DNA from: Labilibacter sediminis | GTDB lineage: Bacteria > Bacteroidota > Bacteroidia > Bacteroidales > Marinilabiliaceae | Length of the DNA stretch: 64,000 nucleotides | Assembly: GCF_005877885.1 (NCBI RefSeq) | Contig: NZ_VCHY01000001.1 | Span: 248,001-312,000 of the forward strand | Reading direction: 5' to 3' | Made by a program: the position numbers and the translations under genes | Shown: positions 21,990 through 61,044 of the stretch, one piece after another | Position numbering within the stretch: position 1 is the stretch's first letter | How the letters are laid out: each line of letters begins with the position of its first letter | The notes under the pieces: generated by a model | Database searches by the model: none | What the model was told of the DNA's origin: nothing | Seen by the model: only the letters and a program-made list of their open reading frames with translations

Positions 21990-22008
21990 CTTTATAAACT
22001 GTATTGCA

Positions 22009-23478
22009 CTAATTTACCTTTACTAACTGAGGAAACTGATATTTTAGGCTTATCACTTCTTCATGCGGCTCGTACATTCTTAAGATAAGATAAAAACCAC
22101 CTTTAGGAGCAGGTAACCAGTTGTCTGTATTTTCTGGTTTTTCGTTCTGAATTAAAATATCAAACGAGCCGTCTGTATTTCTTTTCAATGCTTTTGATTC
22201 TGAACTAAATTTATAACGATTTAATTCATTATCCACAAACAACTTATTGGTAGCATCATACAATGTTAACGACCAAAATGAATTAACAGGAGGCTCTTTA
22301 TCGAAATGAATTTTGTAACTATTTACACCAGATACCGGCTTATTATCACTATCCGTGAAACGAATAGGGTACATGGCTTCTTTTTCTCCCTGACCACCCA
22401 AATACGGACCTGCAATTAATGAACGAAAAGAAAAATCATAACCATAATTATCAAGTTTTAAGGCTACATTCCATCCATTGTTTACATAAGAAGAAGAGTA
22501 CATAGAAGCTAAGATTGCCAAAGGGCCCTCAACTGCTGCTTCTTTTAATCCTTTAATTCTATTGGCATTTAATGATTTCTCGTCAAACTTACCGTCTTTA
22601 ATTCCGATTCGCTCTAATTGACCAACTAAAGATTTGTCATCATCTAAAATTTGGTTTTGACCGATGGCAAATGCCAAATAACGGTAAAATCGTAAAGTAT
22701 CACTAACATCATATTTAGGCATCGTTGGCAAAGCTGTTGATTTTACCACATTCTTTTTCCCTTTATACTCACTAAGCGATTTTAGTACAAATCGATCTTG
22801 CAAAGCATGAACTTTAGATACATCTTCTCCTTCTAAAACATGAATTCTACCCCAAAGCCAGGTTTTCTGTGTTTTCACCTCAACCTTTTTCGAAATCCCT
22901 TTCGGTAACCTACCTTGCCACCCTGGAGGAATTAATGCTACTTTTTGTGCTTTAGTACCGGTATTTCTTTTTCCGATATATTCAGTCAAGTTATGATACA
23001 TATCAAACACGTTTACCACATAATAGCGACCATCTGTATCAGGTGTTTCTAAAATATAAGGCTCCGTTAAATCAACTACAGCACTCATATAATAAGTATC
23101 ATTGTTAGCCGTTGGCATGTCTGTATCTTCTGCTGTAGGCAAACGCTTAGCCCAACCAATTTCATTTAAAGGAGCACGATAGCTGGTAGCAGGCTTTGGA
23201 TTAGGAACATCAATATATTCTCTCATCGCCTGCTCCATACGTACCATTGCATAACCCCATTCATAAGCAAGCGTACCTACAGCCTTGGCATCTATATAAT
23301 CACCTTTTGCACCAATTTCGGTAGAAGGAGCCACACTAATGATAGGATCCTCTTGTTGGGCTACTAAATCTGATAGTTTATTTTCCTGCTTATCACTTTT
23401 ACAACAGGTATCTGATTTCTTAGTACATGATGTAAATAACAATACCCCTATAACTGCTGTATACAATATTTTTTTCAT
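22009..23478 (-). CDS. DUF1254/DUF1214 lipoprotein, copy 2
   Basis: A 489-residue lipoprotein (lipobox LLFTSC, Cys18, followed by a Cys-containing linker KKSDTCCKSDK). It shares the two-domain plan of the downstream paralogue: DUF1254 with YEWGYAMVRMEQ, NDTYYMSAVVDLTEPYIL and ALIPPGWQGRLPKG; DUF1214 with SFWSLTLYDATNKLFVDN and NWLPAPKGGFYLILRMYEP. The two are clearly diverged and not a recent duplication. An arylsulfatase gene lies 200 bases upstream on the same strand. The function of the family is not established. The vicinal CC pair after the lipobox could be a metal or disulfide site, which is speculation. Confidence 0.8.
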   Translation of the reverse strand: MKKILYTAVIGVLLFTSCTKKSDTCCKSDKQENKLSDLVAQQEDPIISVAPSTEIGAKGDYIDAKAVGTLAYEWGYAMVRMEQAMREYIDVPNPKPATSYRAPLNEIGWAKRLPTAEDTDMPTANNDTYYMSAVVDLTEPYILETPDTDGRYYVVNVFDMYHNLTEYIGKRNTGTKAQKVALIPPGWQGRLPKGISKKVEVKTQKTWLWGRIHVLEGEDVSKVHALQDRFVLKSLSEYKGKKNVVKSTALPTMPKYDVSDTLRFYRYLAFAIGQNQILDDDKSLVGQLERIGIKDGKFDEKSLNANRIKGLKEAAVEGPLAILASMYSSSYVNNGWNVALKLDNYGYDFSFRSLIAGPYLGGQGEKEAMYPIRFTDSDNKPVSGVNSYKIHFDKEPPVNSFWSLTLYDATNKLFVDNELNRYKFSSESKALKRNTDGSFDILIQNEKPENTDNWLPAPKGGFYLILRMYEPHEEVISLKYQFPQLVKVN

Positions 23479-23683
23479 CTGTATAAAAATTTATCTTCAT
23501 TTGTCAGATGAAACTCCCAAATAAATTTGATCATCCTCCTGTGTATCAATTTGGATAATCAAATTTACATGCTCATTTCATGTGTATAATATTTATTTCT
23601 TAATAGCATATGCTTCACTTTTAATCTTATAGTGACATATACACTAATTCATTGTGAAGTCTTTAAATACTTTCATTATCAGG

Positions 23684-45508: not shown

Positions 45509-46750
45509 TTAAGGATTACTGTACCCTCTATGAGATCTTAATACATTACGAATGTATACTCCGGATTCGCTTAGTTCTGATTCAACCCAATGTCCCTTTA
45601 CATTAGCACCTGGAATCAAAGCCGAGGCTGTTTCATCCTTGTCTGCTATTGACCAATTACACCAACTCAATTTATGCTTATCTAAAAACCTAACCCAGTC
45701 ACGGGTCCATTCCCGATTAAAATCACCACCCCCACTTGCATCACTTACTCCCCATTCAGTAACAAACAATGGAATATTTGCCTGAATTGCAGCTTCAGCT
45801 ATTGGTACTAATTTCTGATGACCTTTAGTGGAAGCATAAAAGTGAAAAACATAGCCAATATTCTCACCTTCTATCTGACTTCCTATTACTTCTGAAACCT
45901 CTTGAGACCAATTACGGGTGCCTACTAAAATAATGTTATCACTGTCATGTTTTCGTATTGCTGCAATAACAGTTTCTGCATAAGGTTTTATTACATCACT
46001 CCAAGATACATTTAACGGCTCATTATAAATTTCATAGATTACATTAGGGTACTGTCCGTATTTTTTTGCCATTTCAGTAAAAAAAATAACTGCTTCTTCC
46101 TCATAATTTTCAGCGTGATGTGAATGCCAATCTATAATAACATATACTCCTTTTGCAATTGCTGCATCCACAATTAATTCAACCTTCTCTTTTTCCGAAG
46201 CTTTTGAAATATACCCCCCATTGGCATCTACTCCCATAGCAGCTCTAATAATTGATGATTCCCAGTCTTCAGCGAGCCAATTTACAACATCAGCATTCCA
46301 ATATTTCCCCATCCATTGGCTCCAAAACAAGCTCATACCTCTTAGCTGAACCGGTATTCCAATCTCATCAACAATATATTTTCCTTTTGTTGACAACCGA
46401 CCATATATTTCAACAGGTGTTCCTTCTTGTTTGCGGAAAAGTGCTGAAATTGTAAGCGACTCATTTAATGTTATTACACTAGTTGTATTTCCTGATTCTA
46501 TTGATCCTGACCATGTAATAAATTCATACCCTTCAGATGGATATGTATTTAAACGAACTTTAGTGCCTTGCGGTATTGATGAGAGATCCTCAATGGTCTC
46601 GCCCGTATTATCATTTAACACTTCTACCACTCCTTTATTCTCTGGCAAAACTTGAATATTTATTTCATGTTGCGGTATTTCTTCAGCCTTATTATCGCAA
46701 GAAAAAACAAACAAAGAAACAAGTATTAATAAGCTATTTATGAATTTCAT
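45509..46750 (-). CDS. GH5 endo-beta-1,4-glucanase lipoprotein (GH5_2-like)
   Basis: A 413-residue lipoprotein (lipobox FVFSC, Cys18), probably on the cell surface or in the periplasm. Residues 28-108 match the divergent InlB B-repeat type domain (VRLNTYPSEGYEFITWSGSI). The GH5 catalytic barrel follows: RGMSLFWSQWMG near 137, DWHSHHAEN near 207, acid/base Glu244 in IYEIYNEPL, VFHFYAST near 301 and nucleophile Glu332 in LFVTEWGVSD. These patterns best fit GH5 subfamily 2 endoglucanases. ATG 46750 is used; a TTG four codons earlier is less likely. It is the last gene of the PUL 2 operon and is separated from the preceding gene by an internal terminator, so its expression may be lower or separately set. 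Confidence 0.92.
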   Translation of the reverse strand: MKFINSLLILVSLFVFSCDNKAEEIPQHEINIQVLPENKGVVEVLNDNTGETIEDLSSIPQGTKVRLNTYPSEGYEFITWSGSIESGNTTSVITLNESLTISALFRKQEGTPVEIYGRLSTKGKYIVDEIGIPVQLRGMSLFWSQWMGKYWNADVVNWLAEDWESSIIRAAMGVDANGGYISKASEKEKVELIVDAAIAKGVYVIIDWHSHHAENYEEEAVIFFTEMAKKYGQYPNVIYEIYNEPLNVSWSDVIKPYAETVIAAIRKHDSDNIILVGTRNWSQEVSEVIGSQIEGENIGYVFHFYASTKGHQKLVPIAEAAIQANIPLFVTEWGVSDASGGGDFNREWTRDWVRFLDKHKLSWCNWSIADKDETASALIPGANVKGHWVESELSESGVYIRNVLRSHRGYSNP

Positions 46751-46768
46751 TTTACAATACAATTAAAT

Positions 46769-46893: not shown

Positions 46894-48420
46894 TTATTTG
46901 GCTATTAGCTTATTAAAACGATACACCGGTTTATTTGGATGAAGGCAACCAATAAATAATGTTTTAGAATCACCGGTACCATAACCAAACACCTCATACT
47001 TTCGTCCAGGATGGTCATCATCTAGTCCAATACACACCTCTGTACTACTTAGTTCAATATAGATGTATTTATTACCTTCTTCATCTTCAGAAGTAACAAT
47101 GCTATAAGTGTGGCCAGTTCTGGCATTATCGTCAACGAATACCGCTCTTTCTCCATCACCTGCTGAAGCAGCAGTATAATAGCCAGCTGTTAATCCTGCA
47201 TCAACAGCCATAGATGTTGTAATACCATGAGTTTCTATCTTGTAACTTCCATCAGGATAAAAAGTATATTCATCATCATATAGATTATCTCCTTCTCTTT
47301 CATTTGGACCAGCATGCCACCACCATTTAGATGGATCTAATAAATTTGCATATTTAGCCCAACCAACAACACCTAAATGACCTACCTGGGATGCGTCTAA
47401 TGTCCAGGTACCGCCATTTACCTCGTCACCCCCATGAAGTAACATAGCTAAATCTTCAGCATTAATAACCTCACGAGGTTCTGGTTTTTCACGCTCCGGA
47501 ATGTAACCTTTAGGAACAATTCTGCAATACCTGTTCTCGTTGGCACTTACAATACGAAGATATATAGTTTTAGGATCTCCATCTTTATCATCTAGTATTT
47601 CATAACGCCTATCAACATTCTCATCATCATACCCAATACATACATGCTCACTGGATAATTTAATTGCTACCGGGTTTTCTGAATCATCCTCTACGATTTT
47701 AAACTTATAACCATCATTTCGAGCATTATCATCAACCTGCATATTTAAATCATATTGAGTTTCTTTTAATACGGTATAATAATTTCGATTTTTAAGAACA
47801 TCAACATTTTGAACCTGCGTTTTACCGTTTGTTATAGTTTTAAATGAACCATCTGCATAAAAGATAAATTCATCGTCCATTATTTCTGAACCATCCTTTG
47901 AGCCAATTGGAGCATCCCACCATCTGTCGTATTTGTCAGCACCTGAAGCACCACTCCCCAGGAAACCATCAATTGTAGGATCTAACACCCAAGCTTGTCC
48001 ATCAATCGCAGCATTGTTTGTTAATAAATTAAACAACTCCAGAGCAGCATCAGACATCCCTGTAAATGTTTTCTCCTGAATCAATTGTTTGGTTTTAACT
48101 CCTGATTTATTATCGCTAAGAATGGTTAAAGTCACATCATAAGAACCTTGGGCCTTAATCAATACCGTATCCTTTTCTTTACCAACAACAGCTTCTTCTC
48201 TACCTTCTAATTCCCAAGCTAAAGTATATTCTCCATCTATAAGTGATGTATTAGCAATAACAAACCTAAAGGTGTCTATTGCTCCGTTGGGAAGCTTTAA
48301 ATTTTCTATGGAAAAATCTACAGCTTCTTCAGGTAATTTTTCTACATGGCTTAATTCTGTATCGTCAGAACAACTTACAATACAAAATCCGACTATCAAT
48401 AAAAACAATATTTTTTTCAT
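46894..48420 (-). CDS. Duplicated-domain surface lipoprotein, candidate glycan-binding protein of PUL 2
   Basis: A 508-residue lipoprotein (lipobox FCIVSC, Cys17) with an N-terminal Ig/PKD-like segment (about 35-115). Two homologous domains of about 170 residues follow. Each contains WTLD or WVLD, a Gly-rich GFLGSG/GHLGVVG, RWWDAP/KWWWHAG, DDEFIFYADGSFK / DDEYTFYPDGSYK, VDDNAR, and LSSEHVCIGYDDEN / LSSTEVCIGLDDDH followed by RRYEI / RKYEV. The conserved Trp and Asp/Asn suggest carbohydrate binding. No catalytic motif and no known family name was recognised. Position after susD matches a surface glycan-binding protein. Confidence 0.65.
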   Translation of the reverse strand: MKKILFLLIVGFCIVSCSDDTELSHVEKLPEEAVDFSIENLKLPNGAIDTFRFVIANTSLIDGEYTLAWELEGREEAVVGKEKDTVLIKAQGSYDVTLTILSDNKSGVKTKQLIQEKTFTGMSDAALELFNLLTNNAAIDGQAWVLDPTIDGFLGSGASGADKYDRWWDAPIGSKDGSEIMDDEFIFYADGSFKTITNGKTQVQNVDVLKNRNYYTVLKETQYDLNMQVDDNARNDGYKFKIVEDDSENPVAIKLSSEHVCIGYDDENVDRRYEILDDKDGDPKTIYLRIVSANENRYCRIVPKGYIPEREKPEPREVINAEDLAMLLHGGDEVNGGTWTLDASQVGHLGVVGWAKYANLLDPSKWWWHAGPNEREGDNLYDDEYTFYPDGSYKIETHGITTSMAVDAGLTAGYYTAASAGDGERAVFVDDNARTGHTYSIVTSEDEEGNKYIYIELSSTEVCIGLDDDHPGRKYEVFGYGTGDSKTLFIGCLHPNKPVYRFNKLIAK

Positions 48421-48438: not shown

Positions 48439-50112
48439 TTAATAACCAGGGTTCTGATCTGCAGGTGAGATTCCATCATTAGTTAATATTTCTTCATTTG
48501 GAATAGGAAAAATATCAAAGTGCTCGTCATATTCAGCAGAACGTTTACTATATCTGCCGTTTAACGGATACTCTATATCAAGAAATTCTTCAGCCATCCC
48601 CATTCGAGTTAGATCATACCAAACAGTATATTCTGCTACAAACTCTTTACGTCTTTCTTGTACCAGAGCCACTTTCCAAACCTCACTACTATATCCTTTG
48701 GTATTTTTATAATTTGTATAAAAGATCTGTGCGTCAGGAACAATAACAGGCATCCCTGTTTCTCTTGGCGAAGGTATAATTGCCTCTGCATCATACCCGT
48801 TCGGGAAACTGTTTAATCCGACCTCTAAATTTGCAAAAGCACGATTTCTAATTTGGTTGATCTCAGACCATCCATTTCCACCAGTTTGGAACTTACACTC
48901 AGCCAGGTTAAGAAGAACTTCAGCATATCGCATTAAAAGTGCTGACTTTCTATAGTGAATCATTTGCGGATCTTCTTTTGTAATCATATTACACTCTTGC
49001 CAGTATTTTAAACAACGGTTATTTGCCAGGTTAACTTCTCCATTGACATACATGCCAGATGTAAAAGTTGGATGATTTTCAGGCAACTCAAAATATGGAT
49101 TTCCGTTTCCATAAGTCATTACAGAATAGTCCTTACGGTAATCACCAACTTCCATATCTTCAACCCATTCGTGAGAAATAAAAAGTGATCCCCACTCCAT
49201 ATTATTATTTACCCACCAGTAAGCGTCATCATCATTTGCACCACTCCAATTCATATTCTCATGTTCGGGATAAGCAACTTCCCATACACTCTCTTTCCCA
49301 TAACGATAACTCACCGCATTCATTGCACCAAAACAAGGTTCTAATTCATATATACCTTCTTGAACAATATCTTCAAGTTGAAGCTTTGCCATTTCAAATT
49401 GATTGTTTTGCATGTAAGATTTTGCAAGGTATGCTTTAACCATTCCCTTGGTGATTCGACCAGCTTCGTTATTTCGTGGTGCCCAATCGATAATCTCTTC
49501 TGCAAAAGTAAAATCCTCAATAATTTTCTTCCATGCAGCTTCTGTTGATTCCGGGCGTGGCTTATCAGGAGTATTAGAATATGTCTCTCCTGTTTCTAAC
49601 ATTGGAACCGGTCCAAAATTTATAGTTAAGTAAAAAAAGTTGTAAGCTCTTATTACACGTGCCTCTGCTTCCAATAGATCCAGATAATCCTGTCCGCCAT
49701 CTACCTCTGCAACATCTACGTTTTCGAGCATTTGCAAAAATACATTAACTCTATTTATAGCCGTATAACAATGTTTCCAAGGCCCAAGAAAAAAGCCATC
49801 ATCAGCTAACCAGCCAAATTTAGACCAGTTGGCATCCCAACCACCTGCCTGACAATCCATAGCGGGCATGTTGCCTAATTGCACATGTGGCTTAAAGTGC
49901 CAATCTCTTTTGGTACCTGAACTTTCCATCCCGTAAAAAGTATCATATAATCCATTAACCAATTGAGTCATTGTTTTGGTTGGATCGGCTTCCGCTAGAG
50001 CTTCCGGGCTTACAATATTGTAATGCTCAACTTCAAGGTAATCTTCCTGACATGAAAAAAGCATCAGAGAGAAGAAAGTTGTAAATATTAATTTTGAAAC
50101 TATATTTTTCAT
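48439..50112 (-). CDS. SusD/RagB-family outer-membrane glycan-binding lipoprotein (PUL 2)
   Basis: A 557-residue lipoprotein (lipobox LMLFSC, Cys21) that caps the PUL 2 SusC transporter. SusD features include TQLVNGLYDTFYG near the N-terminus, EARVIRAYNFFYLTINFGPVP, GRITKGMVKAYLAKSYM in the TPR-like part, and MRYAEVLLNLAECKF, QERRKEFVAEYTVWYDLTRMG and FPIPNEEI at the C-terminus. Many Trp residues in the variable loops fit binding of a beta-glucan. The gene follows susC by 35 bases and precedes the duplicated-domain lipoprotein by 18 bases, so all belong to one transcript. Confidence 0.95.
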   Translation of the reverse strand: MKNIVSKLIFTTFFSLMLFSCQEDYLEVEHYNIVSPEALAEADPTKTMTQLVNGLYDTFYGMESSGTKRDWHFKPHVQLGNMPAMDCQAGGWDANWSKFGWLADDGFFLGPWKHCYTAINRVNVFLQMLENVDVAEVDGGQDYLDLLEAEARVIRAYNFFYLTINFGPVPMLETGETYSNTPDKPRPESTEAAWKKIIEDFTFAEEIIDWAPRNNEAGRITKGMVKAYLAKSYMQNNQFEMAKLQLEDIVQEGIYELEPCFGAMNAVSYRYGKESVWEVAYPEHENMNWSGANDDDAYWWVNNNMEWGSLFISHEWVEDMEVGDYRKDYSVMTYGNGNPYFELPENHPTFTSGMYVNGEVNLANNRCLKYWQECNMITKEDPQMIHYRKSALLMRYAEVLLNLAECKFQTGGNGWSEINQIRNRAFANLEVGLNSFPNGYDAEAIIPSPRETGMPVIVPDAQIFYTNYKNTKGYSSEVWKVALVQERRKEFVAEYTVWYDLTRMGMAEEFLDIEYPLNGRYSKRSAEYDEHFDIFPIPNEEILTNDGISPADQNPGY

Positions 50113-50147: not shown

Positions 50148-53100
50148 TTAAATTCCCACACTTACACCAAAAGAATATACTCTTGGGAACGGATAACGAC
50201 CTGCATCAAATCCTGTAGCTCGTGGATCTGAATTACCAACTTCCGGATCTCCAAATTTATATGAACTAAATGTTGCCACATTGTCAACACTAAATGATAG
50301 TCGGGCTGACTTCATTTTAACTTTACTCAAAACTGAGTTAGGTATTGTATATCCAAATTGAATACTCTGGATTTTAAAGAAATCTCCTTTTTGAATGTAC
50401 GCATCGGACACTCTTGCATTAAGCGCAAAATTTGTTCTTGTTAACCTTGGGTTTGAAGCGGACGTGTTTTGCGGCGTCCATGAATTTTCAAGAATATCCG
50501 GAGAAACATTTCTCATACCACCTCCAGGTTGATAAACAGGAGCAATCATATTAGCATAAGCAAACGATAGCACGTCTTGCCCGGCTACGCCATGTGCATT
50601 TAGCGCAAAATCAAAATTTTTCCAACCTAAATTAACATTCACTCCATATGTGAAATCCGGCTGACCATTCCCGATAATTGTTTTATCATCTGCTGTAATT
50701 TGCCCATCAGGTTCTCCATTAGGACCAGAAATATCTTTATAAATTCTATCCCCAGCCTTACTCCCAGGTAATGAAGGTCTTAATTGAGTTTCACCATCAC
50801 TCTGAAAAATACCATCTGTTTGATAGCCATACCAGGAACCTACGGCATATCCTTCCTGGGTAACTGAATAGTTTTCCCATTCCATACCTTCAAGAATATC
50901 ATCATAATTATCGTCACTAGAGCCAAAATATATAGGGTCTCCGATTTTAATGGCTTCATTTTTAATTTTAGATCCGTTAAGTTTTACATCAACCATCCAA
51001 TCGCCAAATCGTTTTTGGTAGCCTAACAAAATCTCAAAACCTGTATTTCTAATTTGACCTGTATTGGTATAGACATTGTTATAACCTGTAGATGGACGAA
51101 CTTTAGAATACAATAAAAGATCCTTGGCATCTCTTTTAAAATAATCAAAAGCTAATGTTATGCTATTATCAAACAGACCTAAATCAATACCGATATTGGT
51201 TTGTTCATTTGTTTCCCATTTTAAGTTCTCATCTACAATTACCGAAGGAGCAATACCTGCGGCAGGTGAATGAGTTGTAGGATTGGCATAATCATAGGTA
51301 TAAAACATGATTCTATCTGAACTCACCTGTTGCTTGTACCTGTTAGTCGCATAACCAGAATTACCAGTTTGTCCCCAGCCTAAGCGCAATTTCAAATTAC
51401 TTAGCTGTTCAATATTTATAAAATCTTCTTCTGTTATTCTCCATGCCACAGATGCAGAAGGGAACGTTCCAAAACGATTACCAGGACCAAAATTTGAAGA
51501 TCCATCTCTACGAATGGTTGCTGTAGCGATATAGCGATCTTTATAAGTATAGTTTGCACGACCAAATAATGACGATTGACGAGACTCTAAATTTAAACCT
51601 CCACTCACATGTTCAGATCCTGGATCTTGGGTTAGATCAATTTGACGAATATTTGGTGAAGGAAAATCACTTGCTCCCCCTCGGATAGTTTGTCCTTTTC
51701 TTTGATTTGCTGAGAATCCGGCCATTAAATTAACTCTGCTTGACCCAAATGTATTATTATAGGTCACAAAATTCTCTGTTAAATATTCAATATTCGACCA
51801 ATTATTAACCGAAAAATTATCAATACCTGATGCATTTATAGTACGATTATGCCTGGCACCATACCAGTGACCACCTCCGGCATTATAATTAACACCATTA
51901 ATCGTTTTAATTGTTAATCCTTCAAGAAGCGTTATTTCTAAATACGCATTAGCTAAAGTTCTGTTTTTAAACCATGGACCTTCAGCCGTTTCTGCTACTG
52001 CCACAGGATTATCTAAATTTTTATTCACATAAGTACTGGAAGAGTTTGCTTCATGAAAATACCCCCAGGTACCATCAGGGTGCTGAACAGGTTCGTGAAC
52101 AATATTACCCGTAGCATCTCTATAATCCATAGTGGGAACTAAAGCTGCATAATCATACAGATTTCCGTTACCTTCGCCCTCTTCTCGAGTATATATCAAA
52201 CTTATTCCGGTTTTAATGAAGTCATTAACTTTCATGTCGATATTTGATCTCGATGTTATTTTTGTATAATCACTTCCTTTAATAACGCCCTTATCATTCA
52301 GGTAACCTACCGACATAGATGCTTGTACTGATTCGGATCCTCCTGATGCAGTCATATGATATTGTTGCCTCAATGTTGTTTCTGTCATTTCATCCTGCCA
52401 GTCAATATAGTTTAGCTTTGAAGGATCAGACCAAGTAGGATTGGGGGTAGTTCCATCATTGATATTCATTTGATTAGCCACAGCAGTAAAGCCAGCCATA
52501 TCCGCCACATCAATTTTACCGCTTAAGGTATTTACACCAAATGTAGCTTTAGCACTTATAAAACTACCATCAGAAGATCCTTTTTTTGTGGTAACCATTA
52601 TAACACCATTAGCTCCCCTCGATCCGTAAATTGCTGTAGCAGAAGCGTCTTTAAGAACTTCTATAGACTCTATGTCGCTTGGATTTAAAAAATCAGCATT
52701 GGAACCTACCATGATTCCATCTACCACATATAAAGGTTTTGTTGAATTATTAATGGTAGCAACACCACGTATTACCACATTTGCAGATTCTCCAGGTTTT
52801 CCAGAGGTTCTAACCACCTGAACACCTGAAGCCATCCCTTGCAATCCCTCACTCAAATTAGCTACACTTTTATTGGCCACCTGTTCTGACTTAACCGAAA
52901 CTACCGATCCTGTAAGGTCACTCTTTTTGGCAGAACCATAACCAATGGCAACTACTTCATCTAGCAACTCAACACTTGGTTGTAGCTCAACATTAATAAT
53001 ACTTTGGTCTGCAAGTAATACTTCATAGTTATCGTATCCGATGAACGAAAAAACAATCGTATTTCCTTTTTCTACAGACAATGAATAGTTACCATTGAAA

Positions 53101-53312
53101 TCAGAAATAGTACCACCTGTTAAACCTTTTACATAAACTGTTACCCCGGGTAAAGGGTCTTTATTAGATGCGTCAGTAATATTTCCTGTTATCGTGGTTT
53201 GAGCAATAGCCCCTACTGACATTAAACATAGCAGTATAGTAAAAGAACTTTTTACTATACTTTTAAAAAACTTTTCCAAAAGAAAAATCTCAACTCTCTT
53301 TTTTTGATTCAT
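50148..53312 (-). CDS. SusC/RagA-family TonB-dependent transporter (PUL 2)
   Basis: A 1054-residue outer-membrane oligosaccharide importer. After a long N-terminal leader with a hydrophobic stretch (FTILLCLMSVGAIAQ) comes the carboxypeptidase-like domain (ITGNITDASNKDPLPGVTV). The plug follows (VVAIGYGSAKKSDLTGSVVSV; PLYVVDGIMVGSNADFL; VLKDASATAIYGSRGANGV), then the barrel, ending VYSFGVSVGI. Length and motifs are standard. It is the first gene of the operon and has a 140-base 5' leader after a predicted -7 box that is preceded by the conserved PUL 2 operator. Confidence 0.96.
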   Translation of the reverse strand: MNQKKRVEIFLLEKFFKSIVKSSFTILLCLMSVGAIAQTTITGNITDASNKDPLPGVTVYVKGLTGGTISDFNGNYSLSVEKGNTIVFSFIGYDNYEVLLADQSIINVELQPSVELLDEVVAIGYGSAKKSDLTGSVVSVKSEQVANKSVANLSEGLQGMASGVQVVRTSGKPGESANVVIRGVATINNSTKPLYVVDGIMVGSNADFLNPSDIESIEVLKDASATAIYGSRGANGVIMVTTKKGSSDGSFISAKATFGVNTLSGKIDVADMAGFTAVANQMNINDGTTPNPTWSDPSKLNYIDWQDEMTETTLRQQYHMTASGGSESVQASMSVGYLNDKGVIKGSDYTKITSRSNIDMKVNDFIKTGISLIYTREEGEGNGNLYDYAALVPTMDYRDATGNIVHEPVQHPDGTWGYFHEANSSSTYVNKNLDNPVAVAETAEGPWFKNRTLANAYLEITLLEGLTIKTINGVNYNAGGGHWYGARHNRTINASGIDNFSVNNWSNIEYLTENFVTYNNTFGSSRVNLMAGFSANQRKGQTIRGGASDFPSPNIRQIDLTQDPGSEHVSGGLNLESRQSSLFGRANYTYKDRYIATATIRRDGSSNFGPGNRFGTFPSASVAWRITEEDFINIEQLSNLKLRLGWGQTGNSGYATNRYKQQVSSDRIMFYTYDYANPTTHSPAAGIAPSVIVDENLKWETNEQTNIGIDLGLFDNSITLAFDYFKRDAKDLLLYSKVRPSTGYNNVYTNTGQIRNTGFEILLGYQKRFGDWMVDVKLNGSKIKNEAIKIGDPIYFGSSDDNYDDILEGMEWENYSVTQEGYAVGSWYGYQTDGIFQSDGETQLRPSLPGSKAGDRIYKDISGPNGEPDGQITADDKTIIGNGQPDFTYGVNVNLGWKNFDFALNAHGVAGQDVLSFAYANMIAPVYQPGGGMRNVSPDILENSWTPQNTSASNPRLTRTNFALNARVSDAYIQKGDFFKIQSIQFGYTIPNSVLSKVKMKSARLSFSVDNVATFSSYKFGDPEVGNSDPRATGFDAGRYPFPRVYSFGVSVGI

Positions 53313-53451: not shown

Positions 53452-53519
53452 CAAACCTAAATGATGAGGAAGGAAACTATTTGACACTCTGTTTTTTTGA
53501 ATTACACCACTGTTTTAAA
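53452..53519 (-). promoter_or_regulatory. Promoter and probable HTCS operator of the susC operon (PUL 2)
   Basis: The minus-strand -7 box TAGGTTTG is at 53459-53452. Upstream, 53481-53519 matches 56616-56654 (before the secreted GH5 gene) at 32 of 39 positions. The -7 box starts 22 bases below the motif edge in both cases. On the minus strand each motif holds a direct repeat at 21-base pitch: ACAG twice here, ACAA twice in the other copy. No good -33 element is present, as expected for an activator-dependent promoter. Confidence 0.75.
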
Positions 53520-53532
53520 CAGGTAAAAAAAG

Positions 53533-53566
53533 CTTGACGATACGTATTATTGTCTTGACGATATGT
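53533..53566. promoter_or_regulatory. 13-bp direct repeat at 21-bp pitch upstream of the susC operator
   Basis: CTTGACGATAcGT (53533-53545) and CTTGACGATAtGT (53554-53566) match at 12 of 13 positions and start exactly 21 bases apart, two helical turns. They share TTGAC with the edge of the 39-base motif at 53481. The pair is absent from the GH5 upstream region. They look like half-sites for an AraC-type dimer. Confidence 0.6.
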
Positions 53567-53571
53567 CCGAC

Positions 53572-54165
53572 ACCCTAAACCATAAACCCCAGAACAGCCT
53601 AACAACCAATAACTAAACAATCAAAACTCCTCTTACACATCCAATAAAACGAACATGGGAATTTTAATTAATAAAATTGCACACTGGTGCATGATTAAAA
53701 TTAAATTGAGAGTTACACAGGTATTTATGCAAGCTGGTGAGACCTTTAACAAGTAAATTTAAAACACTTGAAACTATGAATTGAATTTAGGAGTTGCTTT
53801 ACGGCTACTTCTAGAGTAAATATTATAATGAAAAAGATTAAAAGAATGCTTTCTGTAGTGCTTTCAAATAAATAATCGGACTATCATTTTAAATTAAGCA
53901 GTTAGTTTTATGAATGACACAAAATTTTCAAATCAACCAATTCCTTATGTCTTTTTTTAAGTTGTGATAGTAATATCCCCTCTATATCATTTTGATGGTT
54001 TAAACCCATACTCAGCAACCTTTCAATAAGCACATACGGCTTTAATCCTTATTCCCTTTCAAAATAACTTATGATTATGCCTGAATCACTTTTAATGTTG
54101 CAAATCTGTATGTATTTATGAAAAACTGATACTAATTGACAAAAATCAAAGAGTCATTTACATTA
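53572..54165. other. Intergenic region between PUL 2 susC promoter and the GH5 terminator
   Basis: About 590 AT-rich bases with no gene. The start (53572-53630) is an ACCCTAAACCATAAACCCC / AACAACCAATAACTAAACAA low-complexity tract of the family seen elsewhere in the window. No further promoter box or hairpin was convincing. Confidence 0.5.
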
Positions 54166-54166
54166 C

Positions 54167-54205
54167 AAAAAAAAGAGGCTATCAACACTTGCGTGAGATA
54201 ACCCC
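54167..54205 (-). terminator. Intrinsic terminator of the secreted GH5 gene
   Basis: On the minus strand GGGGTTATC (54205-54197) pairs with GATAGCCTC (54183-54175), using G-U pairs, and is followed by a run of eight T. It lies 115 bases after the stop of the gene. Confidence 0.75.
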
Positions 54206-54319
54206 TTATTATTTAGACAGCATTTATCCTTTAATAAGGATACCATCTATTACAAACCTATATTTACCTCAATCCGATATAATCCTGAGCTCGTCAATAT
54301 TAATCGAATTAAAGTCAAT

Positions 54320-56470
54320 CTAAATTATTACTAACTTTTTGATTTCTGAATTTATCTTTACTAAATATATTCCCTTTCCTCCTATTTCACTTGTTGGAAT
54401 AGAAATACTAGAAGATAAGTTTGACCTTGAAAACACTTTCCTGCCTGTAGAATCATAAATATTTAATTCCACAGTATTTTCTGAATTAATACTAATCGTA
54501 ACAAATTCATTTGCGGGATTAGGATAAACACTAAAGCTATTATTAGATATGGTTTCTTCACTAGTAATAGTATTTAGGTTTGCTGATTTAGTAGTTGAAA
54601 CACTTACAAATTTCCACTGTTGACTTTGATTATAATTACCTGTACTCCATAATTTTACGTTTTGATTATTTGCACCACCCGGACCTCCAGCAATAGAGAA
54701 ACCAGAAGCGTTTCTTTTTTCAAGACGATAAAAATCATTTTCTACATGTACTTTTTTCCAATGTTGGTTTTGGTCATCACTTTTGCAGGTAACTAATTTA
54801 ACGTTTTGACCATTTGCCCCACCATTTCCTCCATCAATACAATAGTTTGTACCTTTCTTCTGATAACTATAGTATCCATTTCCTCTATCAATTTCATTCC
54901 ACTGTTGAGTTCCACTATTAATATTAGCACTATACAAATTCACATCCAAAGCGCTAGTCCCTTGAATAGCGTAACCAGTTGCATTTCGTTTAATTAATTG
55001 AAAAACATTATTTGCGACCCCGCTAGTAACTGATACGTCAACATTGGCTTCATTGTCAATTTTTGTACTCCAATTTCCACCGTCTACAGTAATTATGGTT
55101 TGAAACTGGTAGGCATTATCAGCTACAGGAGTATTATCCGGAATAACTATATCAATATCTAAAGTTCCAGTTCCTGCAGTAACATCTACTTTTTTGTCTA
55201 CATAGGATGTCCATGGATCTGAATCTAATTGAAAAGTAACTACAATATCTCTATTGGTTGATGACGAATAGTTAACGGTAACAGTGGCTGTTGATCCGGG
55301 ACTTACAGATTCAGGTGTGTTAATAGAGATAATATCGTCACTGTAATTTATACCACTATTATTGATAATTGAATCTACTACTGGTTCATATTCCCAATCA
55401 CAATTATCTCTATCCATCAATTGAAAATTTCCACCATCATCCCAAATAACAGGTGTAAGTTTATACGCTAAAGCTTCTTTTGTATAATACGCTGCATGTA
55501 CAGCCCGATCTGTAGCTACATTAGATTTTAAGGTTCCCCATTCACCAATAACAACGGCTATATTCTTATCAATAAATTTAGTTTTAATGGTATTAAATAC
55601 TCCTTTTAAATCTGACTTATCCTGAGCTGTCCCCCACTCCTTATCATTTGTTGTTCCGGAAAATGCCCACGGACTGTAAACATGTACAGAAAGAATCACC
55701 TTTTCATCATTATTTGGGACAACAAAATCATCCAATGCAACAGAAGTATAACTTGCAGCATATGTGGGACACATTAAAAAACGTTTGGCATTATTACCAC
55801 CGGAATTACGTATGGTATCAACGGCTGCTTTATTAAAAGCATTTACCACCGTTCTTTCTGATGCAACTCCTCCATTCCATTCATTAGTACTTCCATGTAC
55901 GCGAGGTTCATTAATAGTTTCAAAAATCAAGTAGTCGCCATAATCTTTAAATCTTGTTGCTAATTGTCCCCAGATCTTTTTCAACTGTTTTACTGCTGCA
56001 TCTTTATTCGCCGTTGTAGGCTCTAGCCAATCATCTTCTTCGTGATGTGTATTTAAAATCACATACATATTATTATCAAATGCATAGTTTACCACCTCTT
56101 CAACACGATCTAACCATGCCTTATCAATTGTATAATTTGGAGAATTTCCAACATGATTGTACCAGGTAACCGGAATACGAATAGTCTTAAAGCCTTTTTC
56201 CGCTACTGCAGTTATCATAGCTTTTGTAGTTTTCGGATTACCCCACATGGTTTCTGTATTAAGCCCAGATGCGTAAGTACCATGTGCATCTAAAGTATTT
56301 CCTAAATTCCAACCAACACCCATATCGGCTGTTAATTGTAGAGCAGTTAAATTATCCCGTATTCCTGTTTTAGCAGTTTGTGCTAAAATAGGTGTAATAC
56401 TGAGAAGTGAAATTGCAGCAAAACAAAACATGAGTTTTGCATTAATAAATGTAAAAATGTTCTTTTTCAT
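54320..56470 (-). CDS. Secreted multidomain GH5 endoglucanase (GH5_4-like) with ricin-type module and type IX secretion tail
   Basis: A 716-residue extracellular endo-beta-1,4-glucanase. It has a signal peptide to about residue 31, then a GH5 barrel at 40-375: GWNLGNTLDA (53-62), HHEEDDW near 142-148, acid/base Glu188 in FETINEPRVHG, HVYSPWAF near 263 and nucleophile Glu310 in VVIGEWGT. The motif GWNLGNTLDA with WGNP fits subfamily 4 (endoglucanase, lichenase, xyloglucanase activities). An Ig-like beta-sandwich (about 385-475) follows, then a ricin-type beta-trefoil with three QxW-like motifs (QQWNEI, QHWKKV, QQWKFV; about 485-625). The C-terminal type IX secretion sorting domain has SVYPNPANEFV and GIYLVKI. 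It forms its own transcription unit, divergent from HTCS 2 and preceded by the shared operator. Confidence 0.93.
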   Translation of the reverse strand: MKKNIFTFINAKLMFCFAAISLLSITPILAQTAKTGIRDNLTALQLTADMGVGWNLGNTLDAHGTYASGLNTETMWGNPKTTKAMITAVAEKGFKTIRIPVTWYNHVGNSPNYTIDKAWLDRVEEVVNYAFDNNMYVILNTHHEEDDWLEPTTANKDAAVKQLKKIWGQLATRFKDYGDYLIFETINEPRVHGSTNEWNGGVASERTVVNAFNKAAVDTIRNSGGNNAKRFLMCPTYAASYTSVALDDFVVPNNDEKVILSVHVYSPWAFSGTTNDKEWGTAQDKSDLKGVFNTIKTKFIDKNIAVVIGEWGTLKSNVATDRAVHAAYYTKEALAYKLTPVIWDDGGNFQLMDRDNCDWEYEPVVDSIINNSGINYSDDIISINTPESVSPGSTATVTVNYSSSTNRDIVVTFQLDSDPWTSYVDKKVDVTAGTGTLDIDIVIPDNTPVADNAYQFQTIITVDGGNWSTKIDNEANVDVSVTSGVANNVFQLIKRNATGYAIQGTSALDVNLYSANINSGTQQWNEIDRGNGYYSYQKKGTNYCIDGGNGGANGQNVKLVTCKSDDQNQHWKKVHVENDFYRLEKRNASGFSIAGGPGGANNQNVKLWSTGNYNQSQQWKFVSVSTTKSANLNTITSEETISNNSFSVYPNPANEFVTISINSENTVELNIYDSTGRKVFSRSNLSSSISIPTSEIGGKGIYLVKINSEIKKLVII

Positions 56471-56586
56471 TATGATTTTGATTTAAGTGAAAAAAATTAG
56501 TTGATGTTTTTACTCATAACTTGAATTACACAAGTATCAATAGCTCATAATTTAATAGTGGGTAAATTGGTTAAAAAAACACAGGT

Positions 56587-56654
56587 CAAACTTATAATGA
56601 AAACTCTATTACATATTGACTATTTGTTTTTTTGAATTATACCATTGTACTAAA
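56587..56654 (-). promoter_or_regulatory. Promoter and probable HTCS operator of the secreted GH5 gene
   Basis: The minus-strand -7 box TAAGTTTG is at 56594-56587, and the 39-base motif shared with the susC promoter is at 56616-56654, at the same distance from the box. Its core on the minus strand is ACAATGGTATAATTC then A7 and ACAA, a 21-base direct repeat. The rest of the 317-base divergent region (56471-56787) must also hold the HTCS 2 promoter, which was not located. Confidence 0.75.
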
Positions 56655-56787
56655 ACCAGCATAAATCTTTGATTTAGGAATGGTTTGAATTGATTGAGCG
56701 TCCAATATACCCTGCAAGAACTATTCATACACCATATTTCAGTATTAGAATGTTTTTTTTTATGAGATAAAAAACAAGCTAATTAAA

Positions 56788-59700
56788 ATGAGATCAATAA
56801 GACTTACGATTTTCTTTTTTGTCTTAACTGTGAATTGTTCGCAGGTACGTGGAATAGATATATTGGATAATACGATTGCTAATCTAACATATAAAGACGG
56901 ACTTTCTGATAATAATGTCAATTGCATAGCTCAAGATACAACTGGATTTATATGGATTGGGACAAGAAATGGGCTCAATAGATATGATGGTTTTAAAGTC
57001 AAATCATACTTTCATGATGCATTAATACCAAACAGCATAAGCGACAACCACATAACAGCAATACATATAGACCCTTTAGGCACAGTATGGGTTGGTACGC
57101 AAAACAATGGTTTATGCAAATACAACCCTTTAACAGATAGTTTTATACACTATAAAGGAATTTCTTTTCAGGACAGTGTATTATCGCATCCATATGTTAC
57201 TGATATATGCGATGATACTTATGGTAACTTATGGGTTTCAACCGCTGAAGGGATTAACTTATACCATAAAGAAGCTGATTATTTTGAACCCTTTCTTTTT
57301 GGTTTAGTCTATAAAATTACGGACGATGATATTAACCGATTAAGTCATTTGCATATTTCTGATGGAGGACTTAAGGCCATTTATAAGTTGCGAAACAAAA
57401 TATTTAGTTCTAAATATGACTTAATAAACAACCTTAACTCCATAGCAAAAAACAAAATACCAAAAGAAGAGTTAAGTACAATCGTAAAATATGCATTTAA
57501 AAGAATTCCTGAGAAAAATAATAAGTTTGAACGTTATAACTCAATATGTTCCGATAACTCAGGTAATTTATGGTTAGCATTTCGCGAAGGAGGTTTTGCT
57601 GTTTTTAACACAAAAACATGCCAATTAGAACATATTTCTATTCCTTCTCAATTATCCAGTACATCATCACCTTTTCGTGTCTCCTCGTTATTGGTTAATA
57701 ATAATAAACTTTGGATAAGTACTCGAGATAAAGGAATTTATATCTATTCAATAACTGATAAAACTTTTACTAAAATTCAAAATGATGTATCAACAAGCAT
57801 ATATTTGACTAAGCAAAAACAAGATATATTTTATTATTCTAATCAAAAAATATACAAATTTGCTAATAGTAATAACACAAACAGCACAATACCAGAAATA
57901 TTCATACCTGAAATCACATATTGTGTATCGGAAATATTTATAGATAAAGAAGAAAATATTTGGGTAGCCTCAAATGGAGATGGAGTTTTTATAGCACAGA
58001 AAAAAAAGAACTTTACTATTTGGGATAAAACAGAAAGAAGTCCCGTTCCATTATCAAAAAAGGCTGTTTCATCCCTCCATCACAATGACGGTTTTTTGTA
58101 TGTAGGCTATTATAATAACAATATCGACCAGATTAATTTATCGACTCAAACACTAACCACTCTTCGTGATGATTCAGTAGTAAATAGTGAACATCTGCTT
58201 GGTTCGGTATATGCAATTAATAATGATGATCAGGGAAATTTATGGGTAGGTAGTTATTTTAACGGACTTCAAAAGATAAATAAAAATTCATCACAAACAG
58301 AATACCTATATTCAAACAATGCCTTAGATTTTAGGAGTTTTACAATCGACAATAATAATAATCTGTGGGCCGCATCTCATGGATATGGATTATTACAATT
58401 TGACTCAACTGGTGTTTATAAAAATCAATGGCATGTTGATTATGACAACTGGATTAACAGTTTATGCGATGATTGGCTTACCCAGTGTTGCGTAGATACA
58501 AGTAATATTCTATGGATAGCTTCTTCTCTTGGCCTTTGTAAATTTGATACTTCAACCAATGAATTTACAACTTTCAAACACAAAAAGAATAATCCCTCAA
58601 CTATAAGCCACGACAATATAATTACTGTTTATTGTGATGTAGACAATAATATTTGGGTAGGAACTCCTAATGGACTCAATTTATTTAACCGCTACGATCA
58701 AAGTTTTACACACTTTACCGATAATCAAGTCATCAACAATGTTTGCGTAAATTCAATTATAGAAGATCATCATAAAAACCTATGGTTAGGTACAAAAACT
58801 GGTATCTTACATATACTCTTAAATCGCGAAGCCACTCCAGAAATTAAAAATGTACACAACTACAGTTATCATAGCGGTGCAAACGGTGAGAATTTCCCAC
58901 GTGCAGTTACAAAAGATACAAATAACAACATATATTTTGGTGGAAAACATGGTATAACATGGTTTAATCCTGATGAAATATCACCAACGCAAAGCATTTA
59001 TAAGGTTGAAATATCAGACATACGAATACTTAACAAAAGCATATTCAGTCATAACTCACCTTACATCGAAATTGGAAAATCTTTTTACAAGAATAAATCC
59101 ATAACCCTTAATTATGAGCAAAATATCTTAAGCATTGACTTTACCGCCTTTAATTTTCTTCACAACAATAAAATACAATATTCAACCTTCTTAGAAGGAT
59201 TCAATAATTCATGGCAAGAAATAGGCAGTGATCATAAGGCAACATACACCAATCTTAAACCGGGCACCTATACTTTTATAGCTAAAGCTAGTCCTATAGA
59301 TGAAGATGAAATTGTATTAAGTTCCAGTATTGAAATTATAGTACTACCTCCATTTTTTAAATCGAACCTTGGAATACTAACTATTTCATCCATAATTTTA
59401 CTAATTCTATTCCTATCCTTTTATATAATATTTAGATGGTTTACATTACAAAAGAGTGTCGATTTAAAACAGATTGAAGCAAATAAGCTAAAAGAACTAG
59501 ATAGGTCTAAGTCTATTTATTTTACAAATATTACTCATGAATTCAGAACACCAATTACCCTTATACAAGGGCCTATCAATAGCATTTTAAAAGACACACA
59601 AAATAAACTTACCCGCAGTGAAATTACAACCCAATTAAAATTAGTAAAAAGAAATACAGCGCTCCTCCTTAGGTTAGTTAATCAAATCCTTGATTTTAAA

Positions 59701-61044
59701 AAGGTTGATGCCGGAAAAATTTCATTTCACCCAACCTACGCCGATATAATACCTTTTATTACTAAAATTGCGGAAAGCTTTATTCCTATGGCTAAAGAAC
59801 AACACATTTCTTTTGACATAAATTTCTCAGATTCTTCATGTATGACAATGTTTGATACGGATAAAATGGAAAAAATCATATACAATCTTTTATCTAATGC
59901 TTTTAAGTACACAACAGAAGGAGAATCCATAAGCATAAGAATTACAATCGATACTAACAATTCTCAAATAGAAAATTCATCACTTTTTAAGATAATTGTT
60001 AAGGATTCAGGAATAGGAATACCTAAAGATAACCTCTCAAGCCTATTTTCACTTTATTATCAAGCAGAAAACGCAAATACAACTGATAAAATTGGAAATG
60101 GAATTGGGTTGTACCTTGTTAAAACCTATACTGAACTACATGGTGGTAAAGTGTATTGCGAAAGTACTTTAAATAAAGGATCTGTATTTACGGTAGAAGT
60201 ACCAATAAAATCAAATTTAACAACAGAAACCTTTTACCATGAACCAAATATGATACTTAACAAACACAATACGGTAGAGCATATTGAAAAAACAAAAATT
60301 TTGCTTGTAGAAGATAATGTCGATATTCAGTTTTTTATAAAGAATCAGTTGAAAGATAGTTTTAATATAATTACTACCAATAACGGAGCTGATGCTCTAG
60401 AACAATTAAAAACGTCAAAACCAGATATCATAATTAGCGATATAATGATGCCTGTACTAGACGGATATGAACTTTGTAAGCAGGTAAAAAAGAACGTTTC
60501 CTACTGCCACATACCTTTTATTATGATTTCAGCAAAAATAACTCATGAATCAAAGCTTAAGGGTTATAATGCTGGAGCAGACGATTATTTGACTAAACCA
60601 TTCGATCCCGAAATATTAATATTAAAAATTAATCGTATAATGGAATTAAGAAAAAACATTCAAGAACAAATAATAGAAAAACCTGATATAATTCCTCAAG
60701 CCATCAATCAAAAAGAAAATCCTGAAAAACTCTTTTTAGAAAATCTTTATGCAATTATTGAAGAAAATATTGATAATATAAATCTTGATGTCGATTATTT
60801 GTCTAAAGAACTTTCTATCAGCAGGTCAGTATTATACGAGAAAATTAAAATATTAACTGATCAGCCAATTGCAGAGTTTATTAAAAATTATCGACTAAAT
60901 AAAGCAACCAAAATCATTGAAAAAGGAGAGTCTATCATCTCAGAAGTTGCCTGGCAAGTGGGTTTTAAATCTCACGCACATTTCACACGTTCATTTAAAC
61001 AAAAATATAATTGCACTCCAACTGAATTTAAATCTAAACGATAA
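56788..61044 (+). CDS. Hybrid two-component system regulator (HTCS) of PUL 2
   Basis: A 1418-residue one-protein sensor and activator. It has a signal peptide and propeller repeats of the Reg_prop type (GFIWIGTRNGLNRYDG, TVWVGTQNNGL, NIWVASNGDGVF). A Y_Y_Y domain (LEGFNNSWQEIGSDHKATYTN) is followed by a membrane helix (LGILTISSIILLILFLSFYI). Then come HisKA with His in NITHEFRTPITLI near 910 and HATPase (YNLLSNAFKYT; GNGIGLYLVKTY). The receiver has KILLVEDN and Asp in IIISDIMMPVLDG, from about 1170. The C-terminal AraC domain ends SHAHFTRSFKQKYNCTPTEF. The first propeller contains an unusual charged helical insertion at about 170-245 that replaces normal blade sequence. It is divergent from the secreted GH5 gene and probably activates both PUL 2 units through the 39-base motif. 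Confidence 0.95.
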   Translation: MRSIRLTIFFFVLTVNCSQVRGIDILDNTIANLTYKDGLSDNNVNCIAQDTTGFIWIGTRNGLNRYDGFKVKSYFHDALIPNSISDNHITAIHIDPLGTVWVGTQNNGLCKYNPLTDSFIHYKGISFQDSVLSHPYVTDICDDTYGNLWVSTAEGINLYHKEADYFEPFLFGLVYKITDDDINRLSHLHISDGGLKAIYKLRNKIFSSKYDLINNLNSIAKNKIPKEELSTIVKYAFKRIPEKNNKFERYNSICSDNSGNLWLAFREGGFAVFNTKTCQLEHISIPSQLSSTSSPFRVSSLLVNNNKLWISTRDKGIYIYSITDKTFTKIQNDVSTSIYLTKQKQDIFYYSNQKIYKFANSNNTNSTIPEIFIPEITYCVSEIFIDKEENIWVASNGDGVFIAQKKKNFTIWDKTERSPVPLSKKAVSSLHHNDGFLYVGYYNNNIDQINLSTQTLTTLRDDSVVNSEHLLGSVYAINNDDQGNLWVGSYFNGLQKINKNSSQTEYLYSNNALDFRSFTIDNNNNLWAASHGYGLLQFDSTGVYKNQWHVDYDNWINSLCDDWLTQCCVDTSNILWIASSLGLCKFDTSTNEFTTFKHKKNNPSTISHDNIITVYCDVDNNIWVGTPNGLNLFNRYDQSFTHFTDNQVINNVCVNSIIEDHHKNLWLGTKTGILHILLNREATPEIKNVHNYSYHSGANGENFPRAVTKDTNNNIYFGGKHGITWFNPDEISPTQSIYKVEISDIRILNKSIFSHNSPYIEIGKSFYKNKSITLNYEQNILSIDFTAFNFLHNNKIQYSTFLEGFNNSWQEIGSDHKATYTNLKPGTYTFIAKASPIDEDEIVLSSSIEIIVLPPFFKSNLGILTISSIILLILFLSFYIIFRWFTLQKSVDLKQIEANKLKELDRSKSIYFTNITHEFRTPITLIQGPINSILKDTQNKLTRSEITTQLKLVKRNTALLLRLVNQILDFKKVDAGKISFHPTYADIIPFITKIAESFIPMAKEQHISFDINFSDSSCMTMFDTDKMEKIIYNLLSNAFKYTTEGESISIRITIDTNNSQIENSSLFKIIVKDSGIGIPKDNLSSLFSLYYQAENANTTDKIGNGIGLYLVKTYTELHGGKVYCESTLNKGSVFTVEVPIKSNLTTETFYHEPNMILNKHNTVEHIEKTKILLVEDNVDIQFFIKNQLKDSFNIITTNNGADALEQLKTSKPDIIISDIMMPVLDGYELCKQVKKNVSYCHIPFIMISAKITHESKLKGYNAGADDYLTKPFDPEILILKINRIMELRKNIQEQIIEKPDIIPQAINQKENPEKLFLENLYAIIEENIDNINLDVDYLSKELSISRSVLYEKIKILTDQPIAEFIKNYRLNKATKIIEKGESIISEVAWQVGFKSHAHFTRSFKQKYNCTPTEFKSKR

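What the first reader, a model, noticed from the sequence alone, without database searches (positions are those of the whole stretch)
53452..56654. Conserved 39-base operator at identical distance from both PUL 2 promoters
53481-53519 and 56616-56654 match at 32 of 39 positions in otherwise unrelated intergenic DNA. In both, a TAnnTTTG -7 box (TAGGTTTG, TAAGTTTG) lies with exactly 21 bases between it and the motif. Within the motif, a four-base direct repeat at 21-base pitch changes in step (ACAG...ACAG versus ACAA...ACAA). This is what one expects for an AraC-type HTCS dimer that activates both units. It gives a concrete operator prediction for an HTCS, few of which are mapped.
Basis: partly seen in the sequence, partly recalled or inferred. 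Interest (0 to 1): 0.75.

Follow-up and report, generated by a model that had tools for sequence, protein, structure and literature searches.

The report
HTCS operator pair in one PUL
Two promoters of a glucan-degrading gene cluster carry nearly the same 39-base control site at the same distance from the promoter, most likely the docking site of the sugar sensor-regulator encoded beside them; it fits a design already described in related bacteria and is a good new example rather than a surprise.

Summary
In detail: 32 of 39 identities, both blocks exactly 21 bases from a minus-strand TAnnTTTG box; 500 shuffled pairs reach at most 28. The core has no third copy in the genome at up to 3 mismatches. 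Best reading: operators of the adjacent AraC-type HTCS, switching on a GH5 gene and the susCD-508aa-GH5 unit. This design is published: 16 predicted Bacteroides HTCS motifs are direct repeats averaging 21 bp (PMC3878776, passages). A motif-free test in the genus agrees: 19 of 114 HTCS-adjacent intergenic regions carry a strong 21-bp repeat, against a mean of 4.2 at 29 other spacings, and box-anchored self-match also peaks at 21. A second locus of this genome has paired, box-locked sites with other letters. Against: neither site here passes that test's own threshold (9 and 7 of 14), the GH5 site is hardly a repeat, the 'change in step' is one column pair, no ortholog allows footprinting, PUL 1 shows no clear repeat, and binding is untested. 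A new member of a known kind.

The parts
53481..53519 (-). operator copy 1, upstream of the SusC unit; on the minus strand two half-sites (AAAACAGTGGTGTAATT and AAAACAGAGTGTCAAAT) at 21-base pitch; the second runs one to two bases past the 39-base block
   Evidence: 32 of 39 to copy 2; 11 of 21 self-match at shift 21
53452..53459 (-). -7 box TAGGTTTG, 21 bases from operator copy 1
   Evidence: fits TAnnTTTG (consensus cited in PMC7366714, passages)
56616..56654 (-). operator copy 2, upstream of the GH5/ricin-lectin gene, in the intergenic region shared with the HTCS gene
   Evidence: 32 of 39 to copy 1; self-match at shift 21 only 8 of 21
56587..56594 (-). -7 box TAAGTTTG, 21 bases from operator copy 2
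56788..61044 (+). HTCS 2, 1418 aa: Reg_prop, Y_Y_Y, HisKA, HATPase_c, response regulator receiver, AraC-type HTH; CHIP motif in the receiver
54320..56470 (-). GH5 cellulase/endoglucanase-like protein with ricin-B-lectin and Por secretion tail; target unit 1
50148..53312 (-). SusC-like TonB-dependent receptor, first gene of target unit 2
48439..50112 (-). SusD-like protein, target unit 2
46894..48420 (-). 508-aa protein without Pfam match, in the place where a surface glycan-binding protein is often found (recalled); target unit 2
45509..46762 (-). second GH5 endoglucanase-like protein, target unit 2 (operon membership inferred from spacing)
53533..53562 (-). second 21-base direct repeat, ATCGTCAAG twice, just upstream of operator copy 1; a weak third copy reaches 53583; role unknown
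   Evidence: 12 of 14 match at shift 21; 2 of 300 shuffles reach it

Best explanation
The two 39-base blocks are the operators of HTCS 2. When an oligosaccharide binds its periplasmic sensor, HTCS 2 is phosphorylated on its receiver domain, which frees the AraC-type domain. Two such domains bind side by side in the same orientation to two half-sites 21 bases (two helical turns) apart (minus strand, roughly AACARnnnnnnnAAW twice). The promoter-proximal half-site starts 33 bases upstream of the TAnnTTTG box, where a -33 element would lie, so the bound protein can recruit RNA polymerase with the primary sigma factor. This switches on the GH5 gene and the susC-susD-508aa-GH5 unit together. Shown: the paired sites in register with the boxes, their uniqueness in the genome, the intact HTCS gene beside them, and the 21-bp repeat excess next to other HTCS genes of the genus. 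Inferred: that HTCS 2 is the binder, that it binds as two half-sites here, that it activates, and the ligand (a beta-1,4-type glucan fragment).
For: Sites and spacing. Two sites only in the genome. HTCS domain set; kinase histidine, receiver aspartate and CHIP motif. Motif-independent test on unique non-convergent intergenic regions, window excluded: 19 of 114 HTCS-adjacent regions have 11 or more of 14 matches at shift 21, against mean 4.24 (sd 1.89, max 8) at 29 other shifts; SusC-adjacent 1 of 14; other regions of those loci 5 of 198 (mean 5.0 at other shifts); controls 5 of 106 (mean 2.59, max 7). Box-anchored mean self-match, window included, is highest at shift 21 in HTCS loci (4.56; other shifts 3.84-4.23; controls 3.89 at 21), and highest for proximal copies starting about -46 to -33 from the box. 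L070, another HTCS locus of this genome, has two promoters matching at 31 of 42 in register with the box, with a TGTAWGAT-like octamer recurring at 21 bases (7 of 8 and 6 of 8). Published: 16 Bacteroides HTCS motifs are direct repeats averaging 21 bp. Both GH5 proteins match cellulases/endoglucanases best among solved structures.
Against: Neither site here reaches the 11-of-14 threshold of my own test (SusC site 9, GH5 site 7), and the GH5 site shows no preference for shift 21. In L070 the repeat is confined to the octamer; over 14 bases shift 21 is not the best (7 of 14). No ortholog of HTCS 2 was found, so footprinting is impossible: at most 36% identity over part of the protein in the genus; none at E 1e-220 in the other 70 family genomes; one 32% hit in 393 order genomes, own included; no other at E 1e-230 in 395 phylum genomes; at most 32% in the GTDB scan, which is tuned to close relatives. 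PUL 1 of the window shows no clear 21-bp repeat in four upstream regions (best 9 of 14). A first test on SusC promoters with exact boxes (8 boxes) gave no clear peak at 21. 95 of 114 HTCS-adjacent regions miss the threshold. Control regions are somewhat raised at 21 too (7 of 147; other shifts 0-9). Binding and start sites are untested.
Confidence: 0.72

Rival explanations
1. The paired block is the operator of a different regulator (another AraC-type protein or another HTCS of the genome) that coordinates the two units, and HTCS 2 uses another site, such as the ATCGTCAAG repeat at 53533-53562.
For: The genome has 24 HTCS-like matches at E 1e-100 or better, HTCS 2 included. A second direct repeat, stronger at 21-bp pitch (12 of 14), lies just upstream of copy 1. 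The binder is assigned by position only, and the block's own repeat is modest.
Against: The exact ATCGTCAAG array has no other genomic place at up to 2 mismatches, so it is absent from the GH5/HTCS region. The 39-base core has only two genomic copies, both in this cluster, as expected for a local regulator.
Confidence: 0.17
2. The 39 bases are a shared promoter or bending element (A-tract and upstream element) read by RNA polymerase itself or by a general factor, not by an HTCS.
For: The block contains an A7 run, and a 21-bp period equals two helical turns, as phased A-tracts would give. Control regions show a small rise at shift 21.
Against: Two hits only in the genome at up to 3 mismatches of the core; a general element would be common. 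The 21-bp excess is concentrated next to HTCS genes.
Confidence: 0.06
3. The similarity is a leftover of a promoter duplication and has no function of its own.
For: Two copies in one cluster could arise by duplication.
Against: Identity drops to background at the block edges while the box distance is kept: 4 of 21 in the spacer, 22 of 60 upstream. Recent copying would leave similar flanks.
Confidence: 0.04

Closest known systems
Predicted HTCS binding motifs of Bacteroides (Ravcheev et al. 2013, PMC3878776; passages read)
   Same: [quoted passage not shown] motifs shared by several promoters of one locus are described.
   Different: Another, unnamed genus; only two sites in one genome, without orthologs; here the distance to the TAnnTTTG box is tied in. 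The passages I saw give no box distance; figures (logos) and supplements were not seen, so letters were not compared.
BT4124/bt4114 and BT4663/bt4662 HTCS-promoter pairs (PMC11253607; passages read)
   Same: HTCS acting on the susCD promoter of its own locus; binding shown there by EMSA; the CHIP motif discussed there is present in HTCS 2.
   Different: Experimental there, inferred here; the DNA sequences used there were not seen.
L070 locus of the same genome (contig C155 42000-55999)
   Same: Two promoters in an HTCS locus with paired sites (31 of 42) at a fixed distance from TAnnTTTG, octamers 21 bases apart.
   Different: Unrelated letters (TGTAWGAT type); divergent genes of 408 and 560 aa rather than susC.

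Membership tests
HTCS (hybrid two-component system with AraC-type output), protein 56788-61044 | Reg_prop/Y_Y_Y sensor, HisKA, HATPase_c, receiver, AraC-type HTH in one chain | tested here: met
   Pfam-A matches in that order; HTH_18 57.1 bits against cut-off 33.6
HTCS (hybrid two-component system with AraC-type output), protein 56788-61044 | Phospho-acceptor His and Asp, S/CHIP receiver motif | tested here: met
   THEFRTP, SDIMMP, YCHIP read by eye; the partner D and K of the AraC domain were not assigned
HTCS operator of the Ravcheev type | Direct repeat with about 21-bp pitch | tested here: inconclusive
   SusC site 11 of 21 and best among shifts 15-27; GH5 site 8 of 21 and not best
HTCS operator of the Ravcheev type | Shared by more than one promoter of the HTCS's own locus | tested here: met
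HTCS operator of the Ravcheev type | Local: few sites outside the HTCS's own locus (Ravcheev describes some distant sites too) | tested here: met
   2 sites in 6.36 Mb at up to 3 mismatches of a 24-base core
HTCS operator of the Ravcheev type | Conserved upstream of orthologous genes in related genomes | not testable with these tools
   no ortholog of HTCS 2 found
HTCS operator of the Ravcheev type | Bound by the HTCS receiver-AraC fragment | not testable with these tools
   needs EMSA or footprinting
Bacteroidota primary-sigma promoter | TAnnTTTG -7 box | tested here: met
   TAnnTTTG outnumbers the reversed pattern 181 to 118 in 430 HTCS-locus upstream regions and 77 to 26 in 147 controls; start sites not mapped

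The most novel reading that the evidence does not exclude
HTCS operators follow a fixed ruler tied to the primary-sigma promoter: two 21-bp-spaced half-sites with the proximal one starting about 33-46 bases upstream of TAnnTTTG, in place of a -33 element, whatever the letters. Operators and regulons of the many HTCSs could then be read from single genomes without orthologs. In this locus the SusC promoter in addition stacks a second 21-bp array (ATCGTCAAG) upstream, so either two regulators or a longer HTCS array controls the transporter separately from the GH5 gene.
Probability: 0.28. Interest if true: 0.55.

Novelty: new member of a known kind. Interest (0 to 1): 0.35.

Why it matters
HTCSs are a major class of glycan sensor-regulators in Bacteroides and relatives, and many have no known operator. 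This pair is a clean, testable prediction in a locus without orthologs, and the genus-wide test suggests that the 21-bp, promoter-anchored layout may help to find HTCS operators where footprinting across species is impossible.

Tried and rejected
Footprinting through orthologs of HTCS 2: none found. Other copies of the core in 9 genomes of the genus at up to 3 mismatches: two stray hits, with three hits of the reversed control; the listed open reading frames around them do not look like a PUL, judged by eye. One other 2-mismatch hit in 393 genomes of the order, with one hit of the reversed control; no exact TAnnTTTG box lies within the next 120 bases. A search of 100 fetched stretches (window apart) for sites like the motif: best score 17.6 against 49.5 and 51.7 for the two copies. 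The nearest AraC domain, in L068 (61 of 125 identical), has no site that I could recognise by eye. Box-anchored test restricted to SusC promoters: 8 boxes, no clear 21-bp peak. PUL 1 of the window: four upstream regions, best 9 of 14.

Within-locus pairs of upstream regions: 7 of 41 loci had a pair at 29 of 39 or more: the window, L061 (36), L063 (32), L070, L074, L080 and L087. L080 and L087 are one intergenic region read from both sides; L061 was not followed; L063 shows no preference for shift 21 and is not counted as support; L074's pair lies away from its HTCS and may belong to another regulator. So paired sites as such are not unique to this cluster. The list contains short-period tandem repeats (L061; window 30335), and regions between divergent genes are counted from both sides; one search counts each region once, leaves the window out, and uses only the outer 600 bases on each side of regions longer than 1200.

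Full report
Observation. The two blocks, boxes and spacings are as described: 32 of 39 identities, TAGGTTTG at 53452-53459 and TAAGTTTG at 56587-56594 on the minus strand, 21 bases between box and block in both. In 500 pairs of dinucleotide-shuffled upstream regions the best 39-base match was 28. Identity outside the block is 22 of 60 upstream, 4 of 21 in the spacer and 21 of 60 beyond the box. A 28-base core hits only these two places in the window, and a 24-base core only these two in the whole genome of 6,355,814 bases at up to 3 mismatches, with no hit of the reversed control.

Anatomy. Read on the minus strand in rows of 21, copy 1 is GTTTAAAACAGTGGTGTAATT / CAAAAAAACAGAGTGTCAAAT and copy 2 is TTTTAGTACAATGGTATAATT / CAAAAAAACAAATAGTCAATA. 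The rows of copy 1 agree at 11 of 21 and those of copy 2 at 8 of 21; shift 21 is the best of shifts 15-27 for copy 1 but not for copy 2. In 14-base windows the best self-match at shift 21 is 9 for copy 1 and 7 for copy 2. The shared part is roughly AACARnnnnnnnAAW. The ACAG/ACAA change in step is one pair of columns among seven differing columns; I put its chance probability near 0.08 by rough arithmetic, so it is suggestive only. The proximal ACAR starts 33 bases before the T of the box. By eye there is no TTTG at the -33 place, as in an activator-dependent promoter; but PMC7366714 (passages), which cites the B. fragilis consensus, also notes that the -33 motif was not found in Flavobacterium johnsoniae, so this argument is weak.

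Surroundings. Copy 2 lies between the GH5 gene (54320-56470, minus) and the HTCS gene (56788-61044, plus). Copy 1 lies upstream of susC (50148-53312), susD, a 508-aa protein without Pfam match, and a second GH5. Both GH5 proteins match cellulases or endoglucanases best among solved structures, which fits a beta-1,4-type glucan but does not fix the substrate. The HTCS has the full domain set, with kinase histidine, receiver aspartate and the CHIP motif that PMC11253607 (passages) links to suppression of DNA binding until phosphorylation. Its last 88 residues match PDB chain 12aw_A, deposited as a hybrid two-component system protein (E 8.5e-13).

Test of the mechanism without the motif. No ortholog of HTCS 2 was found: at most 36% identity over part of the protein in the genus, 9 genomes with the own one; none at E 1e-220 in the other 70 of 71 family genomes; one 32% match in 393 order genomes at E 1e-200; no other in 395 phylum genomes at E 1e-230; at most 32% in the GTDB contig scan, which reaches close relatives only. 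Footprinting was therefore impossible. I asked instead whether HTCS loci in general carry 21-bp direct repeats. I took 80 stretches around HTCS matches (140 matches in all; all 24 of the own genome, two of which lie in the window, and 58 stretches from the 116 matches of the other genomes, mainly down the E-value ranking), plus the window. With the controls included, the set holds 85 HTCS genes; L118 lacked a complete one. Twenty spaced stretches of G003 served as control; six hold regulator-like genes or a SusC. In unique, non-convergent intergenic regions, with 52 near-duplicates dropped and the window left out, 19 of 114 HTCS-adjacent regions had 11 or more of 14 matches at shift 21, while the 29 other shifts gave mean 4.24, sd 1.89, max 8. 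SusC-adjacent regions gave 1 of 14, other regions of the loci 5 of 198 (mean 5.0 at other shifts), controls 5 of 106 (mean 2.59, sd 1.77, max 7). A count by gene, window included, gave 39 of 430 at shift 21 and 3 to 17 at the others; controls gave 7 of 147 at 21 and 0 to 9 at the others. The two sites of this finding do not themselves reach the 11-of-14 threshold, so the test supports the design, not these two sites directly.

Position relative to the promoter. Anchored on exact TAnnTTTG boxes, the mean self-match in HTCS loci, window included, is highest at shift 21 (4.56; other shifts 3.84-4.23; controls 3.89 at 21); 13 of 160 boxes have a match of 9 or more at shift 21, against 2 to 9 at other shifts. 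It is highest for proximal copies starting about -46 to -33 from the box; this locus, at -33, lies at the near edge. A first attempt on SusC promoters only had 8 boxes and no clear peak, and PUL 1 of this window shows no clear repeat in four upstream regions. In-register comparison of the 42 bases upstream of boxes ranks this pair first of 203 within-locus pairs (32 of 42). L070, in the same genome, is second (31 of 42), with octamers of TGTAWGAT type 21 bases apart (7 of 8 and 6 of 8; over 14 bases shift 21 is not the best). L074 is third (29 of 42) but away from its HTCS. Three of 203 within-locus pairs reach 26, against 13 of 36,400 between-locus pairs, from which overlapping stretches and orthologous promoters were not removed.

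Literature. PMC3878776 (passages) predicted motifs for 16 of 36 B. thetaiotaomicron HTCSs; all are direct repeats, on average 21 bp apart, read as a dimer on one side of the DNA, and the authors call for experimental tests. PMC11253607 (passages) reports EMSAs of BT4124 and BT4663 fragments on susCD promoters in which such sites had been predicted. [quoted passage not shown] The listings that I saw for HTCS operators (in full; 20 of 170; 20 of 206) show no other paper on HTCS operators by title. The library is open-access only, so this is no proof of absence.

Conclusion. The blocks are most likely HTCS 2 operators of the published design: a new member of a known kind. The identity of the binder, activation and the ligand are inferred. 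The finding as given does not mention a second 21-bp array, ATCGTCAAG twice, at 53533-53562 (12 of 14 at shift 21; 2 of 300 shuffles of the intergenic region reach it; no other genomic place at up to 2 mismatches). It could be a second control site of the SusC promoter and is the main loose end.

Noticed in passing
window 53533-53583, minus strand: Second direct repeat with 21-bp pitch (ATCGTCAAG, ATCGTCAAG, weak ATGGTTTAG) just upstream of operator copy 1; no other genomic place at up to 2 mismatches.
   Followed up: partly
L070 4957-4995 (minus) and 5448-5486 (plus), same genome, contig C155: Two divergent promoters in another HTCS locus with paired sites (31 of 42) at equal distance from TAnnTTTG.
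   Followed up: partly
L074, upstream of genes 1-644 and 1132-2277: Two promoters sharing TGTAACA-rich sites in register with the box (29 of 42), away from the HTCS; possibly another regulator.
   Followed up: no
L113, L081, L129, L092 HTCS-adjacent intergenic regions: 21-bp direct repeats of 12 to 14 of 14 next to HTCS genes, candidate operators of those HTCSs.
   Followed up: partly
L061, upstream of genes 3981-6566 and 16354-17154: Two upstream regions share a block of 36 of 39, and more beyond it; nature unknown.
   Followed up: no
window 56664-56671, plus strand: AATCTTTG (one mismatch to TAnnTTTG) pointing at the HTCS gene, 9 bases beyond operator copy 2; the same site might also affect HTCS 2 itself.
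   Followed up: no
window 14433-23683: PUL 1, with its own HTCS, shows no clear 21-bp repeat in four upstream regions (best 9 of 14).
   Followed up: partly
window 56788-61044: HTCS 2 has no ortholog in the genus, family or sampled order and phylum genomes: an orphan locus, perhaps acquired.
   Followed up: partly
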